From: Mycobacteriales bacterium
GTDB taxonomy: Bacteria; Actinomycetota; Actinomycetes; Mycobacteriales; CADCTP01
DNA: 33,403 nucleotides
Assembly: GCA_035995165.1 (NCBI GenBank)
Contig: DASYKU010000133.1
Span: 1 to 33,403 of the forward strand
Direction of reading: 5' to 3'
Part shown: in pieces, positions 20,635 to 31,494 of the stretch
Numbering within the stretch: position 1 is the stretch's first letter
Layout: every line of letters starts with the position of its first letter
Program-made: the position numbers and the translations under genes
The notes under the pieces: model-generated
What the model saw: only the letters and a program-made list of their open reading frames with translations
What the model was told of the DNA's origin: nothing
Database searches by the model: none

Positions 20635-21510
20635 ATGCAGAGCGTCTGGAAGGGCGTCATCTCGTTCGGGCTGGTCTCCATCCCGGTCCAGCTGTTCGCC
20701 GCCACCGAGGAACACAGCGTGTCCTTCCGCCAGATCCACGTCTCCGACGGCGGCCAGGTCCGCTACCGGCGGGTCTGCACCCTCGACGGCGAGGAGATCC
20801 CGTACGGCGACATCGCCCGGGGCTACGAGCTGCCCGACGGGCACGTCGTCGTCCTGACCGACGAGGACTTCGCGCAGCTGCCGCTCGCCACCAGCCGCGC
20901 CATCGAGGTCCTCGGCTTCGCCGACGCGGACAGCGTCGACCCGGTCCGGCTTTCCCGCAGCTACTACTGCGACGCGACCGGCTCCGACACGAAGGCGTAC
21001 GTGCTGCTGCGCGAGGCCCTCCGGCGGACCGGCAAGGTTGCGCTGGTCAAGGTCGCCCTGCGCGGCCGCGAGTCACCGGCCGTGCTGCACCCCCGGGACG
21101 GGGTCCTCGTCCTGCACCTGCTGCTCTGGCAGGACGAGGTCCGTACGCCGCGCTTCCCGTTCCGGCAGGACGAGACCCCGCCGCGCCCCCGCGAGCTGGC
21201 CGCGGCCGAGGCCTACATCCACACGCTGACCGGGACGGCGGAGCCGGCGGAGATGGTGGACCGCTACCAGGCGGCGCTCCGGGAGCTGGTGGAGGCCAAG
21301 GTGGCCGGCCGGCAGCTCGAGCAACCGGCCACGCCGACCCCGGTCCACAGCACCGAGGCCCTGATGGAGGCGCTGCGGCGCAGCGTCGAGCAGGCCAAGC
21401 ACGACCGTGGCGACGCCGTGCCGGCGAAGAAGCGCAAGCTCCCCGCCGCCCCGGCGAAGAAGACGACGGCCAAGAAGCCCGCCGCCCGCAGGGCCGGCAA
21501 GAACGGCTAG
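20635..21510 (+). CDS. ku: Ku protein of bacterial non-homologous end joining
   Basis: A 291 aa homodimeric DNA-end-binding protein that threads onto double-strand breaks and recruits ligase LigD. The N-terminus W-K-G-V-I-S-F-G-L-V-S-I-P-V-Q-L is diagnostic; the Ku core (D-G-x-x-V-x-Y-R-R-V-C, Y-Y-C-D, A-Y-x-L-L-R-E-A-L) covers about residues 5-240. The last 30 residues are Lys/Ala/Pro-rich (K-K-R-K-L-P-A-A-P-A-K-K), the basic DNA-binding tail seen in many actinobacterial Ku proteins. The start has a G-rich ribosome site (ggggggc). No ligD lies in the window. Its stop overlaps the convergent oxidoreductase stop by ctag. Confidence 0.96.
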   Translation: MQSVWKGVISFGLVSIPVQLFAATEEHSVSFRQIHVSDGGQVRYRRVCTLDGEEIPYGDIARGYELPDGHVVVLTDEDFAQLPLATSRAIEVLGFADADSVDPVRLSRSYYCDATGSDTKAYVLLREALRRTGKVALVKVALRGRESPAVLHPRDGVLVLHLLLWQDEVRTPRFPFRQDETPPRPRELAAAEAYIHTLTGTAEPAEMVDRYQAALRELVEAKVAGRQLEQPATPTPVHSTEALMEALRRSVEQAKHDRGDAVPAKKRKLPAAPAKKTTAKKPAARRAGKNG

Positions 21511-26531: not shown

Positions 26532-28109
26532 GTGAGGTCACCGGATCCGGACCAGGTGGACGATCCGGACGGCGGTGACGATCGCGCCGTATCCACCCGC
26601 GACCGCCGCCTGGCGACGGTGACGATCACCGAGGCTCCGCTGGCGATCGACGACCTGCTGGCGGTGGTCGACGGCGCGCGGGTGGAGCTGGACGCCACCA
26701 CCCGGGCCGGGATCGCCGCCGGGCGGGCGGTGGTGGACCGGGCGCTCGCCGCCGGCGAGATCGTCTACGGCCTGACCACCCAGGTCGGGCACGGCCGGAA
26801 CATCCGGCTCACCGACGAACAGATCAGCGGCGCCCAGCGGCTGCTCATCGTCTCGCACGGCGGCGGGATCGGGCCGCCGCTGCCGACCGCGGTGGTGCGG
26901 GCCGCCCTCGCCGCACGGCTGAACGGCATCGCCCGCGGGGGCTCCGGCGCCGGCGTCGCGGTCGCGGAGATCCTGGCGGCGATGCTGAACGCCGGCGTGC
27001 ATCCGGTCGTCGCCGAGACGGCCTCGGTCGGGGCGGCCGACCTCGGGCAGATGGCCGGCATGGCCCAGGTCGCGATCGGCATGGGACGCGCCGAGTTCCG
27101 GGGCGAGGTCGTCCCGGGCGCCGAGGCGCTGCGCCGCGCCGGGATCACGCCGCTCGAGCTCGGCGGCAAGGACGGCCTGGCGCTGATCTCCGCCAACGGC
27201 GTGTCGGTCGGCCAGGGCGCGCTGGTCGTGGCCCGGGCCGCCGCGGTGGCCGAGGCCGCCGACGTCGCGGCGGCGCTGTCGATGGAGGCGATCGGCGCCA
27301 ACACCTCGGTCCTGCACCCCGCGGTGGGGCACGCCAAGCCCATCCCCGGTCAGATCGCGGCCGCGGACCATCTGCGCGCGCTGCTCGCCGGGAGCCCGCT
27401 GCTCAGCCCGGACAGCGGCCGGTCGGTGCAGGACGCGCTGTCCTTCCGGGTCGTGCCGCAGGTGCACGGGGCCCTGCGCGAGTACGTCACCGCGGCCCGG
27501 TCCGCGGTGACCGCCGAGCTGAACGCCGCCGCCGACAACCCGCTGGTGTTCGTGCCCGACCAGGTGCTGGTGAGCAACGGGAACTTCCACCCGGTGGTCC
27601 TGGCGACCGCGCACGACGCGCTGCGGATCGTCCTGGCCCAGGTCGGGCAGCTCAGCGAACGCCGGATGAGCCACCTGTGGGACATGTTCTTCGGGCAGCG
27701 GGTGAGCGGGTCGGCCACCGTGGCGTACGGCGTGCAGCTGCGCTATCCGGCGGCCGCGCTGCTGCCCGAGCTGAAGCAGCTCGCGGCGCCGGCCAGCCTC
27801 GACGCGCCGTCCCTGGACCACGGCATCGAGGACCACGGCACCAGCGCGCCGCTGTCCGTACGGAAGACCGACGCCGCGCTGGACATGCTCGAGGACCTGC
27901 TGGCGATCGAGCTGCTGCTGGCCCGCGACGTGCTCTCGACCGCGCCCGCCACGCCGGCCCTCGGCGCCGGCACCGCCGCGGCGCTGCGGACCGTCGAGCA
28001 GGCGATCGCGAGCGCCGAACCGTACCCGGACACCGTGCACCGGGCGCTGCGCGACCACTTCCCGGCCCGGCCCCGCCGAGGGGTCAGCCGACCCAGCCGC
28101 GGTAGGTGA
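26532..28109 (+). CDS. HAL/PAL-family ammonia-lyase homologue lacking the MIO triad
   Basis: A 525 aa protein that follows the histidine/phenylalanine ammonia-lyase fold end to end: Y-G-L-T-T-Q-V-G-H-G-R-N (usual Y-G-V-N-T-G-F-G), G-S-G-A-G-V-A-V, S-N-G-N-F-H-P, Q-D-A-L-S-F-R-V-V-P-Q-V-H-G-A, E-L-N-A-A-A-D-N-P-L-V-F, S-E-R-R-M-S-H-L, E-D-H-G-T-S-A-P. Where the family has S-V-G-A-S-G-D-L, whose Ala-Ser-Gly cyclises to the MIO electrophile, this protein has S-V-G-A-A-D-L (about residues 164-170): Ser and Gly are gone. It cannot make MIO in the standard way, so classical deamination is doubtful. GTG 26532 may be leaderless; GTG 26619 (T-I-T-E-A-P) is an equally credible start. Confidence 0.85.
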   Translation: MRSPDPDQVDDPDGGDDRAVSTRDRRLATVTITEAPLAIDDLLAVVDGARVELDATTRAGIAAGRAVVDRALAAGEIVYGLTTQVGHGRNIRLTDEQISGAQRLLIVSHGGGIGPPLPTAVVRAALAARLNGIARGGSGAGVAVAEILAAMLNAGVHPVVAETASVGAADLGQMAGMAQVAIGMGRAEFRGEVVPGAEALRRAGITPLELGGKDGLALISANGVSVGQGALVVARAAAVAEAADVAAALSMEAIGANTSVLHPAVGHAKPIPGQIAAADHLRALLAGSPLLSPDSGRSVQDALSFRVVPQVHGALREYVTAARSAVTAELNAAADNPLVFVPDQVLVSNGNFHPVVLATAHDALRIVLAQVGQLSERRMSHLWDMFFGQRVSGSATVAYGVQLRYPAAALLPELKQLAAPASLDAPSLDHGIEDHGTSAPLSVRKTDAALDMLEDLLAIELLLARDVLSTAPATPALGAGTAAALRTVEQAIASAEPYPDTVHRALRDHFPARPRRGVSRPSRGR

Positions 28110-29040
28110 CCGGGTCGACGTTGCCGCCGCAGACGATGGCGACCACGTGGCGGCCGGCGAAGCGGCCGGGGTCCTCCAGGACGGCGGCGACGCCGAGCGC
28201 CGCGGAGGGCTCGGCGACCAGACCCGCGTGCTCGTACAGGGCCCGCAGGCCCGCGATGATCGAGGTCTCCCGGACGAGGACGGCGTCGTCGGCGACCGCC
28301 AGCAGATCGTCCAGGACCGCCGGGATGGGGTGGCGGCCGGCGACACCGTCGGCGATCGTGTCGATCGAGTCGGTGCTGACGACCCGGCGTTCGTGCCAGG
28401 ACCGGGTCATGGCCGGGGCGCCCGCCGGCTGCACGCAGAGCACCTCGGTGGCCGGCCGCAGGGTCTTCAGGACGTAGCCCACGCCGGTGGCCATCGCGCC
28501 CCCGCCGAGGGCGATCAGCACCGCGTCGGCGGGCGGTCCGGCGGCCAGCTCCAGGCCGATGGTCGCCGCGCCGTCGCAGGTCTCGACGTCGAGGCTGTCC
28601 TCGACCAGCCGGACACCACGCTGCCGCGCGAGCTCCGCGGCCCGGGCCCGGGCCGCCTCGATGTCGCCGTCGACCAGCTCCAGCTCGGCGCCGAGCGCGC
28701 GGATCCGGTCCAGCTTGGCCGCGGTGGCCGACCGGGACGCCACGACCGTCACGGCCAGGTCCCGGCGGCGACCCGACCAGGCCAGCGCCTGCCCGAGGTT
28801 GCCGGCGCTGGCGCACACCACGGCCCGCCCGCCGCCGGCGGCGAGCAGACCCGCGACCACCTCGGTCCCCCGGCCCTTGAAGCAGCGGACCGGGTTGGCC
28901 GTCTCCAGCTTGATGCTCACCGCGCAGCCGAGTACGCGGTCCAGCGCCTCGCAGCGGTACAACGGCGTGTCGAGGAACACCGGGTCGATCAGCCGGCGCG
29001 CCGCCCGGATCCGGTCGAGGTCCAGACGCGTCCCGGCCAT
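28084..29040 (-). CDS. PLP-dependent threonine/serine dehydratase-like enzyme
   Basis: A 318 aa fold-type II PLP enzyme. The cofactor lysine is in C-F-K-G-R-G-T-E (about residue 55; family S-F-K-x-R-G), the substrate/PLP loop is A-S-A-G-N-L-G-Q-A (about 78-86), and the Gly-rich phosphate loop is A-L-G-G-G-A-M-A-T-G-V-G (about 178-189). The end C-G-G-N-V-D-P is the family C-terminus. There is no C-terminal ACT regulatory domain, so it resembles catabolic dehydratases or racemases. ATG 29040 is used. It converges on the lyase homologue with a 26-base overlap and diverges from the DinB gene 51 bases away. The substrate is probably a hydroxy-amino acid. Confidence 0.88.
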   Translation of the reverse strand: MAGTRLDLDRIRAARRLIDPVFLDTPLYRCEALDRVLGCAVSIKLETANPVRCFKGRGTEVVAGLLAAGGGRAVVCASAGNLGQALAWSGRRRDLAVTVVASRSATAAKLDRIRALGAELELVDGDIEAARARAAELARQRGVRLVEDSLDVETCDGAATIGLELAAGPPADAVLIALGGGAMATGVGYVLKTLRPATEVLCVQPAGAPAMTRSWHERRVVSTDSIDTIADGVAGRHPIPAVLDDLLAVADDAVLVRETSIIAGLRALYEHAGLVAEPSAALGVAAVLEDPGRFAGRHVVAIVCGGNVDPVTYRGWVG

Positions 29041-29091
29041 GGGGATGAAACCTACGTTGCCGCGGGGCCGCCGCATTGGCATCCTTCCGGC

Positions 29092-29682
29092 GTGGCTGAC
29101 ACCGATCCCAAAGACGACCTCCGCCGCTACCTGCAGCGCGGCCGGGAGGCGTTGCTCTGGAAGCTCGACGGACTGTCCGAGTACGACGTCCGGCGGCCGC
29201 TGGTGCCGAGCGGGACCAACCTGCTGGGCCTGGTCAAGCACGTGGCCGCGGTGGAGTCCGGCTACCTCGGCGAGACCTTCGGCCGGCCGTTCCCGGAGGA
29301 GATGCCCGACTGGGACGCCGCCGAGCCGAACGCCGACATGTGGGCGACCGCCGACGAGTCCCGGGAGGACGTCGTCGGGCTCTACCGCCGGGTCTGGGCG
29401 CACTCCGACGCCACCGTCGACGCGCTGCCCCTGGACAGCCTCGGCCGGGTGCCGTGGTGGCCGCCGGAGCGGGCCGAGACCACCCTGCACCGGATCCTCG
29501 TGCACATGATCGCCGAGACCGAGCGCCATGCCGGCCACGCCGACCTGGTCCGGGAGCTGATCGACGGCGCGACCGGGGTGCGCGCGGGCAACACCAGCCT
29601 GCCCGACGCTGACCAGCAGTGGTGGGCGGACTACCACGCGAAGCTGGAACGGACCGCCCGGGAGTTCATCGCCAGGGAGTGA
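29092..29682 (+). CDS. DinB/DUF664 family protein
   Basis: A 196 aa four-helix-bundle protein. L-L-G-L-V-K-H-V-A-A-V-E-S-G-Y-L-G-E-T-F-G-R-P (about residues 43-65) and I-L-V-H-M-I-A-E-T-E-R-H-A-G-H-A-D-L-V-R-E-L-I-D-G (about 137-160) are the characteristic DUF664 blocks, with three His placed as metal ligands. These proteins are related to mycothiol-dependent enzymes, but most are uncharacterised. The GTG at 29092 has no ribosome site, suggesting a short or absent leader. The 3' end overlaps the convergent isocitrate lyase-family gene by 17 bases. Confidence 0.9.
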   Translation: MADTDPKDDLRRYLQRGREALLWKLDGLSEYDVRRPLVPSGTNLLGLVKHVAAVESGYLGETFGRPFPEEMPDWDAAEPNADMWATADESREDVVGLYRRVWAHSDATVDALPLDSLGRVPWWPPERAETTLHRILVHMIAETERHAGHADLVRELIDGATGVRAGNTSLPDADQQWWADYHAKLERTAREFIARE

Positions 29683-30514: not shown

Positions 30515-31195
30515 ATGGATCAGGACCGGATCGTCGGGCGGGCCGTCGGGATCGGCCTCGGCGTCGGCGTGTACGGCGTCTCGTTCGGGGTGCTCGCGGT
30601 GGCCGCCGGGATGAGCGCGGCCCAGGCCTGCGTGATGTCGATGCTGGTGTTCACCGGGGCGTCGCAGTTCGCGTTCATCGGGGTGCTCGCGGCCGGCGGC
30701 GGCGCGCTGGCGGCGATGGGCCCGGCGGTGATGCTGGCGCTGCGCAACGCCGCGTACGGGCTGTCGCTGGCTCCGATCCTGCCGGGCCGGCTGCGGGACC
30801 GGGCGCTGGCCGCGCACCTGGTGATCGACGAGACGACCGCGATGGCCCGGGCCCAGGACGACCCGGCGGCGTCCCGGCGGGCGTTCCTGGCCACCGGCGT
30901 CAGCGTCTGGTTGTTCTGGAACGCCGGCACGCTGCTCGGGGCGCTGCTCGGCGGCGGGCTGTCCGACCCGCGGGCGTTCGGGCTCGACGCGATGTTCCCG
31001 GCGGCGTTCCTCGCGTTGCTCGCGCCGCAGCTGCGCCGCCCGGGCGCGCCGGCCGCCGCGGTCGTCGGGGCGGTGCTGGCCCTGGTGCTCCTGCCGTACG
31101 CGCCGAGCGGGGTGCCGGTGATCGCCGCGCTGGCCGGCGTGGTCCCGGGCGTGCTGCTCGCCCGCGGCGTCCGCTCCCGCGGGGTGCCGGCATGA
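30515..31195 (+). CDS. azlC: AzlC-type branched-chain amino acid exporter subunit
   Basis: A 226 aa membrane protein. G-V-Y-G-V-S-F-G-V-L-A-V-A-A-G-M-S, then V-F-T-G-A-S-Q-F-A-F-I-G (about residues 45-56) and L-R-N-A-A-Y-G-L-S-L-A-P (about 75-86) are the AzlC signatures; about seven helices. With AzlD it forms an exporter of branched-chain or related amino acids. tagcgt at 30503-30508 is a good -10 placed for a leaderless ATG. It overlaps azlD by ATGA. Confidence 0.94.
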   Translation: MDQDRIVGRAVGIGLGVGVYGVSFGVLAVAAGMSAAQACVMSMLVFTGASQFAFIGVLAAGGGALAAMGPAVMLALRNAAYGLSLAPILPGRLRDRALAAHLVIDETTAMARAQDDPAASRRAFLATGVSVWLFWNAGTLLGALLGGGLSDPRAFGLDAMFPAAFLALLAPQLRRPGAPAAAVVGAVLALVLLPYAPSGVPVIAALAGVVPGVLLARGVRSRGVPA

Positions 31196-31494
31196 GCTGG
31201 ACCGTCCTGCTGGCGCTGTGCGCGGTCTCGTACGGGCTGAAGGCGGTCGGGCCGGTGCTGGCCGGCGGCCGGGAGCTCGGCCCGCGGACCCGGCGGACCC
31301 TCGACCTGGTCTCGGTGCCGCTGCTGGCCGCGCTCATCCTCACCCAGACCGTGGGCGACGGTCACCGGCTGGTGGCCGACGCCCGGCTGCCCGCGCTCGC
31401 CGTCGCCGCCGTCCTGGTCTGGCGGCGCGCCCCGTTCCTGGTCGTCGTCCTCGCCGCCGCCGGCACCGCCGCCGTCCTCCGCGCCCTGACCTGA
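31192..31494 (+). CDS. azlD: AzlD-type exporter partner subunit
   Basis: A 100 aa protein with about four membrane helices. Family features are the K-A-V-G-P segment in helix 1, R-R-T-L-D-L-V-S-V-P-L-L-A-A-L-I (about residues 34-50) and the W-R-R-A-P-F-L-V-V-V-L-A-A-A-G-T-A-A ending. The start overlaps the azlC stop (ATGA), so both subunits are made together. It converges on the LacI gene 10 bases away. Confidence 0.93.
   Translation: MSWTVLLALCAVSYGLKAVGPVLAGGRELGPRTRRTLDLVSVPLLAALILTQTVGDGHRLVADARLPALAVAAVLVWRRAPFLVVVLAAAGTAAVLRALT

What the first reader, a model, noticed from the sequence alone, without database searches (positions are those of the whole stretch)
26532..28109. Ammonia-lyase homologue without the MIO-forming Ala-Ser-Gly
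All other conserved blocks of the HAL/PAL fold are present over 525 aa, yet the invariant S-V-G-A-S-G-D-L is S-V-G-A-A-D-L (codons ggg gcg gcc gac around 27028-27039). The Ser and Gly needed for the MIO electrophile are absent without any frame break, and the Tyr loop is also altered (T-T-Q-V-G-H-G-R-N). Since the protein is otherwise intact, it may have a new chemistry (MIO-independent isomerase, lyase, or binding role). Its convergent neighbour is a PLP dehydratase-like enzyme that also handles amino acids.
Basis: partly seen in the sequence, partly recalled or inferred. Interest (0 to 1): 0.75.

Follow-up and report, generated by a model that had tools for sequence, protein, structure and literature searches.

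The report
Ammonia-lyase relative lacking its MIO cofactor
A bacterium, probably an actinobacterium, carries a relative of histidine ammonia-lyase that has lost the built-in MIO cofactor; it belongs to a conserved, little-recognised lineage together with ergothionase, so it probably splits trimethylamine off a histidine-like betaine instead of ammonia off an amino acid.

Summary
The gene at 26532-28109 (probable start 26619) encodes an intact HAL/PAL-fold protein reading SVGAADL where MIO enzymes have S[V/L]G[A/C]SGDL: one residue shorter, no Ser. It is neither error nor decay: 25 of 25 close relatives found (window included) share the Ser-less loop. With signature columns removed, these, four alphaproteobacterial proteins and Treponema denticola ergothionase form one clade (100/99). 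Clade members also lose PpHAL Tyr280, Gln413 and mostly Asn195, but keep Tyr53, Arg283, Phe329 and Glu414. The predicted structure matches ergothionase first; the host's own HutH, modelled likewise, does not. So the 'new chemistry' is in outline a known one: MIO-independent trimethylamine elimination. The window protein lies in a subfamily for which I found no description; its substrate is open. The host has egt and hut genes but no thiourocanate-hydratase-like second urocanase. A sister subclade in hut clusters with betaine transporters points to hercynine-to-urocanate. Against that, 6 of 9 carriers in one family lack urocanase, and one gene run hints at aryl-CoA metabolism. New variant of a known kind; interest 0.55.

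The parts
26532..28109 (+). MIO-less aromatic-amino-acid-lyase homologue (ORF from the first GTG; probable true start GTG at 26619, giving 496 aa)
   Evidence: Open frame; PF00221 411.7 bits; start inferred from relatives L003/L004
27024..27044 (+). S-V-G-A-A-D-L: shortened loop where MIO enzymes have S-[V/L]-G-[A/C]-S-G-D-L
   Evidence: DNA; alignments; 30 of 30 clade rows lack the Ser, 15 of 15 MIO rows have it
26766..26768 (+). Tyr equivalent to PpHAL Tyr53 (retained)
   Evidence: 30 of 30 clade rows and 15 of 15 MIO rows
27189..27191 (+). Ser at PpHAL Asn195 (Asn lost in 29 of 30 clade rows)
27438..27440 (+). Leu at PpHAL Tyr280 (Leu/Ile in 30 of 30 clade rows)
27825..27830 (+). Ile-Glu at PpHAL Gln413-Glu414: Gln lost, Glu kept
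   Evidence: 29 of 29 clade rows with letters lack Gln413 and keep Glu414
28084..29241 (-). convergent PLP-dependent dehydratase-like gene (PF00291; start by a crude gene caller), overlapping the lyase 3' end by 26 bp; probably not linked in function
   Evidence: no homologue clustered beside other clade members

Best explanation
The gene encodes a cofactor-free C-N lyase of the ergothionase lineage within the HAL/PAL fold. MIO enzymes need the MIO electrophile because ammonia is a poor leaving group. This lineage has lost the Ala-Ser-Gly turn and residues on that side of the pocket, but keeps the Tyr/Arg/Phe/Glu set that takes the beta-proton and holds substrate carboxylate and ring (roles recalled from HAL work). 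It would therefore act on a substrate whose nitrogen already leaves well: a trimethylammonium (betaine) group. Most likely reaction: an imidazolyl-alanine betaine (hercynine or ergothioneine, both expected in this host, which has egt genes) gives trimethylamine plus urocanate or thiourocanate. Shown here: loss of the triad, conserved clade, common clade with ergothionase, best structural match to ergothionase, host egt and hut genes. Inferred: trimethylamine as leaving group. Least certain: the ring (imidazole).
For: Clade: 25 of 25 relatives at E<=1e-80 or better (incl. the window) have the shortened Ser-less loop. Tree of 46 rows, signature columns removed: these 25, 4 alphaproteobacterial rows and T. 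denticola ergothionase form one clade, 100/99*. Signature: Tyr280 to Leu/Ile 30 of 30, Asn195 lost 29 of 30, Gln413 lost 29 of 29 with letters; the 15 MIO rows keep Asn195 (15), Tyr280 (14, the 15th being the engineered Y280F structure) and Gln413 (14); Tyr53, Arg283, Phe329 are kept in 30 of 30 clade rows and Glu414 in 29 of 29. Ergothionase aligns through the loop without a gap. Structure: AF2 pLDDT 91.5, pTM 0.91; Foldseek rows 1-3 are ergothionase 6s7j, TM 0.90-0.91 at 26% identity; HALs TM up to 0.88 at 31-32%, best other MIO enzyme TMq 0.89/TMt 0.82 (5ltm); VIA Z 44.4, rmsd 2.2, 480 aligned, next entry 42.3, 2.1, 481. Control: the host's own HutH, same alignment rows, has ergothionase at Foldseek row 20 and VIA entry 11 (Z 42.6 against 45.9). 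Betaine context in sister lineages: a betaine-type (OpuAC) binding protein in the same gene run in 3 of 3 annotated rhizobial loci and near the lyase in 3 of 5 f32 loci, which hold HutU in 5 of 5 (one a 120-aa piece). Host: EgtD and EgtC over cut-off, EgtB partial, HutU over cut-off. Urocanase in 14 of 14 carriers against 123 of 382 non-carriers of one phylum draw. Print: ergothionase lacks MIO and makes TMA (PMC13405746, passages).
Against: In family f16, 6 of 9 carriers of an intact copy have no urocanase, though 99-100% complete; 3 of 9 against 22 of 103 non-carriers, p=0.42, so the product need not feed the Hut pathway there. No betaine-binding protein joined the known cluster in the 20 window-subclade neighbourhoods; in 4 of these my crude gene caller missed even the lyase and several are short contigs, so this is weak. 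In G251 a 66%-identical copy heads a run with a benzoate-CoA-ligase-like protein and a salicylyl-CoA 5-hydroxylase, which fits an aryl product better. Ergothionase is a long branch and its place in the clade is unsettled: p-AU 0.228 for its lying outside the other 29. By sequence alone the window is not nearer to ergothionase: single sequence 177 bits against 201 for a HAL; subclade profile 298.8 against 301.5 and 298.8 for two HALs. The urocanase association is confounded by shared ancestry. The only other genome of the host's genus lacks the gene.
Confidence: 0.6

Rival explanations
1. Same cofactor-free lyase type, but the window subfamily acts on a non-imidazole substrate: an aryl-alanine betaine (for instance of tryptophan, tyrosine or phenylalanine) or another substrate with a good leaving group, giving an aryl-acrylate that goes to a CoA-dependent pathway.
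For: 6 of 9 f16 carriers lack urocanase. In G251 the lyase ends 38 bp before a benzoate-CoA-ligase-like gene (357 bits, cut-off 375), which overlaps a salicylyl-CoA 5-hydroxylase gene (1191.9 bits, cut-off 1078). Two rhizobial relatives sit with a CoA-transferase, MaoC and SDR. The 20-row window subclade is separate from the hut-linked f32 subclade (100/100 each).
Against: The CoA-ligase context is one MAG locus. The host lacks that arrangement in the window and has egt and hut genes. All 13 other carriers of the phylum draw have urocanase.
Confidence: 0.25
2. Pseudoenzyme: the fold was kept for binding or regulation after catalysis was lost.
For: The electrophile and Asn195 are gone; mutants of a HAL at Asn194 (like those at Tyr52, His82 and Glu411) are dead on histidine (PMC11432326, abstract and passages).
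Against: Tyr53, Arg283, Phe329 and Glu414 are conserved in all clade rows with letters there, His83 in 19 of 20 of the window subclade. dN/dS about 0.24-0.38 in four pairs of the window subclade and 0.06 in two f32 pairs. The same losses occur in ergothionase, which is active. One copy, in G219, is broken.
Confidence: 0.08
3. A MIO-independent ammonia lyase, aminomutase or hydratase of free amino acids: the reader's 'new chemistry'.
For: Not excluded by sequence; the retained pocket residues are HAL-like. A MIO-independent route was proposed for PAL with electron-poor substrates (PMC7247363, passage).
Against: Ammonia is a poor leaving group, and the residue losses match those of ergothionase. 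The PAL route is disputed: a MIO-deficient PAL mutant was inactive (PMC12535398, passage). The host already has a HutH with Ala-Ser-Gly.
Confidence: 0.05
4. Isolated mutation or sequencing error.
For: None found.
Against: 25 distinct sequences from separate genomes or MAGs share the shortened loop.
Confidence: 0.01

Closest known systems
Ergothionase (ergothioneine trimethylamine-lyase), T. denticola, PDB 6s7j/6s7q
   Same: Same fold; MIO triad replaced by a loop of the same length; Tyr280 to Leu, NGT to S-x-N, KEG to KDG; one clade at 100/99; best structural match.
   Different: 26-27% identity in structural alignments; the window subclade has its own invariants (Val for Cys284 in 20 of 20; Trp354 of the 496-aa numbering); activity untested; the host's one urocanase-family protein is not of the thiourocanate type.
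Histidine ammonia-lyase (HutH, TIGR01225 / NF006871)
   Same: Fold, Tyr53, His83, Arg283, Phe329, Glu414; 31-32% identity to PpHAL in Foldseek.
   Different: No Ala-Ser-Gly, Asn195, Tyr280 or Gln413; 333-336 bits against cut-offs of 539 and 524; the host has a separate HutH with Ala-Ser-Gly followed by hutU and hutI.
Rhizobial plasmid proteins annotated 'histidine ammonia-lyase' (WP_011649502.1, WP_054185170.1)
   Same: Same shortened loop (SIGAADL, SIGAGDL) and same clade.
   Different: Arg at His83; sit in runs with betaine-type ABC transporters.
f32 subclade in hut clusters (L094, L096-L099)
   Same: Same loop length and signature; 42-45% identity to the window protein.
   Different: Linked to hut genes and, in L098, two OpuAC-type transporters; Glu at the KDG site and Asp after GNF.

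Membership tests
MIO-dependent ammonia-lyase / aminomutase (HAL, PAL, TAL) | Ala-Ser-Gly (or x-Ser-Gly) triad that cyclises to MIO | tested here: not met
   SVG-A-A-DL, no Ser
MIO-dependent ammonia-lyase / aminomutase (HAL, PAL, TAL) | HAL/PAL fold over the full length | tested here: met
   PF00221 411.7 bits; TM up to 0.88 to HAL
MIO-dependent ammonia-lyase / aminomutase (HAL, PAL, TAL) | Asn195 and Tyr280 | tested here: not met
   Ser and Leu
HutH (TIGR01225, NF006871) | Score above the curated cut-off | tested here: not met
   333.4 of 539.15 and 335.6 of 524
Ergothionase lineage (MIO-less clade of the fold) | Common clade with ergothionase, apart from MIO enzymes | tested here: met
   30 rows, 100/99*, signature columns left out; inner branching open
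Ergothionase lineage (MIO-less clade of the fold) | Shortened Ser-less loop plus loss of Tyr280 | tested here: met
Ergothionase (EC-level function) | Four essential catalytic residues reported by Maurer 2019 (that there are four is recalled from its abstract) | not tested
   The paper is not held; residue identities not at hand
Ergothionase (EC-level function) | Releases trimethylamine from ergothioneine | not testable with these tools
   Needs an assay
Ergothionase (EC-level function) | Thiourocanate hydratase in the genome (expected only if thiourocanate goes on by that route; the desulfhydrase route was not tested) | tested here: not met
   One urocanase-family match in the host; it scores as HutU (841 bits) and below the thiourocanate hydratase cut-off (625 of 930)

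The most novel reading that the evidence does not exclude
The lineage holds an undescribed hercynine (histidine-betaine) trimethylamine-lyase that turns the ergothioneine precursor straight into urocanate and so links the Egt and Hut pathways. The f32 members in hut clusters with betaine transporters would be its clearest case, and the window protein, in a host with egt and hut genes, a further one.
Probability: 0.3. Interest if true: 0.75.

Novelty: new variant of a known kind. Interest (0 to 1): 0.55.

Why it matters
Public records call the rhizobial members 'histidine ammonia-lyase', and at the cut-offs I used NCBIfam profiles hit the window protein and its scanned relatives only as HAL/PAL/TAL/aminomutase, all below the curated cut-offs, so a cofactor-free lineage is hidden inside HutH annotation. 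If its members are betaine trimethylamine-lyases, turnover of ergothioneine and related betaines may be much wider than the few organisms named in PMC13405746 (passage), and the family shows how a fold that depends on a self-made electrophile can do without it once the leaving group is good enough. The signature (no Ser in the loop, Leu/Ile for Tyr280) gives annotators a simple rule.

Tried and rejected
Rejected: sequencing error or isolated mutation (25 distinct sequences share it); frame break (none); decay of the clade (conserved residues, dN/dS; one broken copy seen, G219); functional link with the PLP-dehydratase neighbour (no homologue clustered beside other members); a common neighbourhood for the window subclade (in the first 13 stretches nothing beyond synteny of five f16 genomes and a few two-locus matches to broad families).

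Led nowhere or limited: the main ergothionase paper (10.1002/chem.201901866) is not held, so its catalytic residues could not be mapped. Searches for print on a hercynine or aryl-betaine lyase (no paper; listings, from which I opened passages of PMC9732360, PMC7653990 and PMC13405746) showed no such enzyme in what I read. Searches on MIO-less lyases showed ergothionase, MIO-deficient PAL mutants (PMC3903478, PMC12535398, passages) and a proposed MIO-independent side route of PAL (PMC7247363, passage). In a 2022 review of MIO enzyme evolution 'ergothio' and 'Ala-Ser-Gly' do not occur in the main text (PMC9002059). The library holds open-licence PMC papers only. Plasmid searches: 856 records hit each; I read the lyase of six (L061, L062, L063, L111, L112, L113). 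Genome searches score only a few candidates per genome (3, 7, 13), so carriers may be missed. My gene caller is crude (codon-position G+C) and did not call the lyase itself in L061, L063, L088, L089, L091, L093; absence of neighbours rests on the rest. AF2 coordinates are not returned, so active-site distances were not measured. The AU test did not settle ergothionase's place inside the clade (p 0.228) nor whether the Klebsiella plasmid protein is a separate loss (p 0.085). Left out of the tree: seven of nine outgroup stretches (L100, L101, L103-L107) that my filter did not pick up, the broken G219 copy, and most HutH loci fetched.

Full report
What is there. The ORF at 26532-28109 (+) is open and matches the aromatic amino acid lyase family over its whole length. 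The likely start is GTG 26619, near where relatives have a start codon (inference). Its loop reads Ser-Val-Gly-Ala-Ala-Asp-Leu at 27024-27044, one residue shorter than the Ser-Val-Gly-Ala-Ser-Gly-Asp-Leu of P. putida HAL. NCBIfam models for HutH score it well below their cut-offs (333-336 bits against 539 and 524).

It is a clade, not an accident. Searches gave 2 loci in genome contigs, 3 besides the window in 200 genomes of the order, 9 intact plus 1 broken among 112 genomes of family f16 (including the 3) and 13 besides the window in 396 genomes of the phylum. That makes 25 distinct genes including the window (two cut at contig ends, L078 and L080), all with SVG[A/T/S/Q][A/G]D[L/I/V], none with Ser-Gly. 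Scores separate cleanly from HutH: in the order draw the weakest clade member is at E 3e-196 and the best other protein at 1e-67; in the phylum draw (listing limited to E<=1e-80) the weakest member listed is at 2e-95. The distribution is patchy: the only other genome of the host's genus, 96% complete, has a HutH-type match only. The host itself has a HutH with Ala-Ser-Gly on another contig.

The signature goes beyond the loop. In an alignment of 46 rows, 30 share the shortened loop: the 25, 4 alphaproteobacterial (3 Rhizobium, 1 Azospirillum) and T. denticola ergothionase. In P. putida HAL numbering: Tyr280 is Leu or Ile in 30 of 30 (Tyr in 14 of 15 MIO rows, the 15th being the engineered Y280F structure 1gkj); Asn195 is lost in 29 of 30 (kept in L111) and kept in 15 of 15 MIO rows; Gln413 is lost in 29 of 29 with letters and kept in 14 of 15 MIO rows. 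Tyr53, Arg283 and Phe329 are kept in 30 of 30 and Glu414 in 29 of 29; His83 in 19 of 20 of the window subclade, 5 of 5 f32 and ergothionase, but Arg in 4 of 4 alphaproteobacterial rows. In a Geobacillus HAL, mutants at Tyr52, His82, Asn194 and Glu411 were inactive on histidine (PMC11432326, abstract and passages): three of these positions are kept in the window protein, and the Asn is gone.

Phylogeny. A tree with the signature columns removed puts all 30 together (100/99*), the window in a 20-row subclade (100/100*), the five f32 rows in their own (100/100*), and ergothionase next to the alphaproteobacterial rows (92/82). The AU test does not exclude ergothionase lying outside the other 29 (p 0.228); it is a long branch. 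The MIO/no-MIO label needs two changes on the tree, the second being a Klebsiella plasmid protein.

Structure. AlphaFold2 from 34 window and locus sequences gave pLDDT 91.5 and pTM 0.91. Foldseek ranks three chains of ergothionase 6s7j first (TM 0.90-0.91, rmsd 2.2-2.3) at 26% identity, above HALs at 31-32% identity (TM up to 0.88) and a PAL (5ltm, TMq 0.89, TMt 0.82). VIA-align gives 6s7j Z 44.4 (rmsd 2.2, 480 aligned), next 3unv 42.3 (rmsd 2.1, 481 aligned). No ergothionase sequence was in the alignment. As a control, the host's own HutH modelled from the same rows has HAL and tyrosine aminomutase on top, with ergothionase at Foldseek row 20 and VIA entry 11 (Z 42.6 against 45.9). By sequence alone there is no such preference: the window protein scores 201 bits with a HAL and 177 with ergothionase, and a profile of its subclade gives 301.5 (a HAL), 298.8 (ergothionase) and 298.8 (PpHAL).

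What ergothionase does. A 2026 paper states that ergothionase lacks the MIO cofactor and splits ergothioneine into trimethylamine and thiourocanic acid (PMC13405746, passages). The primary structure paper (Maurer 2019) is not held; what I say of its mechanism is recalled. The chemical sense, my inference, is that a trimethylammonium group leaves without help, so the electrophile is not needed.

Substrate clues in sister lineages. In f32 (5 loci) the lyase lies in or beside hut genes: a HutU homologue in 5 of 5 (in L094 a 120-aa contig-end piece), a second, HutH-type lyase in 3 (in L099 a 75-aa piece; over the HutH cut-off in L097 and L098), HutI and HutF-type models over cut-off in L098, and an OpuAC-type betaine-binding protein in 3. 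The HutU proteins scanned (L097, L098, L099) fit canonical HutU (931-942 bits, cut-off 375) and stay below the cut-off of the thiourocanate hydratase model (671-690 of 930). This is what a hercynine-to-urocanate step would look like. In the three annotated rhizobial loci the lyase lies in a run with a betaine-type ABC transporter (by Pfam in L063, by homology in L061, by annotation in L111), two of them also with a CoA-transferase, MaoC and SDR.

Substrate clues for the window subclade are mixed. The host has EgtD (358 bits, cut-off 291), EgtC (302, cut-off 219), a partial EgtB, HutU (841) and a HutI piece cut by the locus end (190, cut-off 298), and a single urocanase-family protein, so it should make hercynine and ergothioneine and can use urocanate. 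Urocanase is present in 14 of 14 carriers and 123 of 382 non-carriers of the phylum draw (p 2e-7; by genus 10 of 10 against 84 of 227, p 7e-5), but relatedness inflates this. In f16 it is 3 of 9 against 22 of 103 (p 0.42), so 6 of 9 carriers, all 99-100% complete, lack it. In the f16 genomes G232 and G145 the gene, with an AraC-type regulator, lies between a NarK-like transporter (298 bits, cut-off 312) and nirB and nitrate-reductase-like genes (typed in G232; G145 has the homologues), which fits a nitrogen-scavenging role. In G251 it heads a run with a benzoate-CoA-ligase-like gene and a salicylyl-CoA 5-hydroxylase gene. No betaine-binding protein joined the known cluster in the 20 window-subclade neighbourhoods, 4 of which were badly gene-called.

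Selection. Nei-Gojobori dN/dS is about 0.24-0.38 for four pairs of the window subclade and 0.06 for two f32 pairs; the genes look functional.

Verdict. A real, conserved, cofactor-free member of the HAL/PAL fold, of the lineage that contains ergothionase. How it works is known in outline from that enzyme; which betaine it takes is open.

Noticed in passing
L112:2857-4389 (Klebsiella pneumoniae plasmid NZ_CP067373.1): A plasmid 'aromatic amino acid ammonia-lyase' beside an ABC transporter, hutC, a HutD-family gene and a formimidoylglutamate deiminase gene has SVGYLIATAH: Ser and Gly of the triad gone, three residues shorter, Phe329 to Gly, Asn195 to Gly, Tyr280 to Leu. Perhaps a second, separate loss of MIO (p-AU 0.085 for one clade with the others). 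Klebsiella gave 197 plasmid records in the tblastn search, of which only this one was read.
   Followed up: partly
L071:742-6259 (G251): Window-type lyase 38 bp before a benzoate-CoA-ligase-like gene that overlaps a bifunctional salicylyl-CoA 5-hydroxylase gene: an unexpected partner set for a HAL-fold enzyme.
   Followed up: partly
L064, L065 (f16 genomes): Window-type lyase plus AraC-type regulator inside a nitrate/nitrite assimilation cluster (NarK-like, NirB, nitrate-reductase-like).
   Followed up: partly
L111 (Rhizobium acidisoli plasmid): MIO-less lyase in a run with a betaine ABC transporter, two LLM flavin oxidoreductases, an ornithine-cyclodeaminase-family protein and succinate-semialdehyde dehydrogenase: looks like a betaine catabolic operon.
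   Followed up: no
G219:C43:19272-19792: A broken copy of the window-type lyase (two C-terminal pieces, 61-63% identity), the one case of decay seen.
   Followed up: no
window 20635-21510 and 30515-31494: A bacterial Ku (NHEJ) gene over its cut-off and an AzlC-like gene (below cut-off) followed by a small gene; ordinary neighbours.
   Followed up: no
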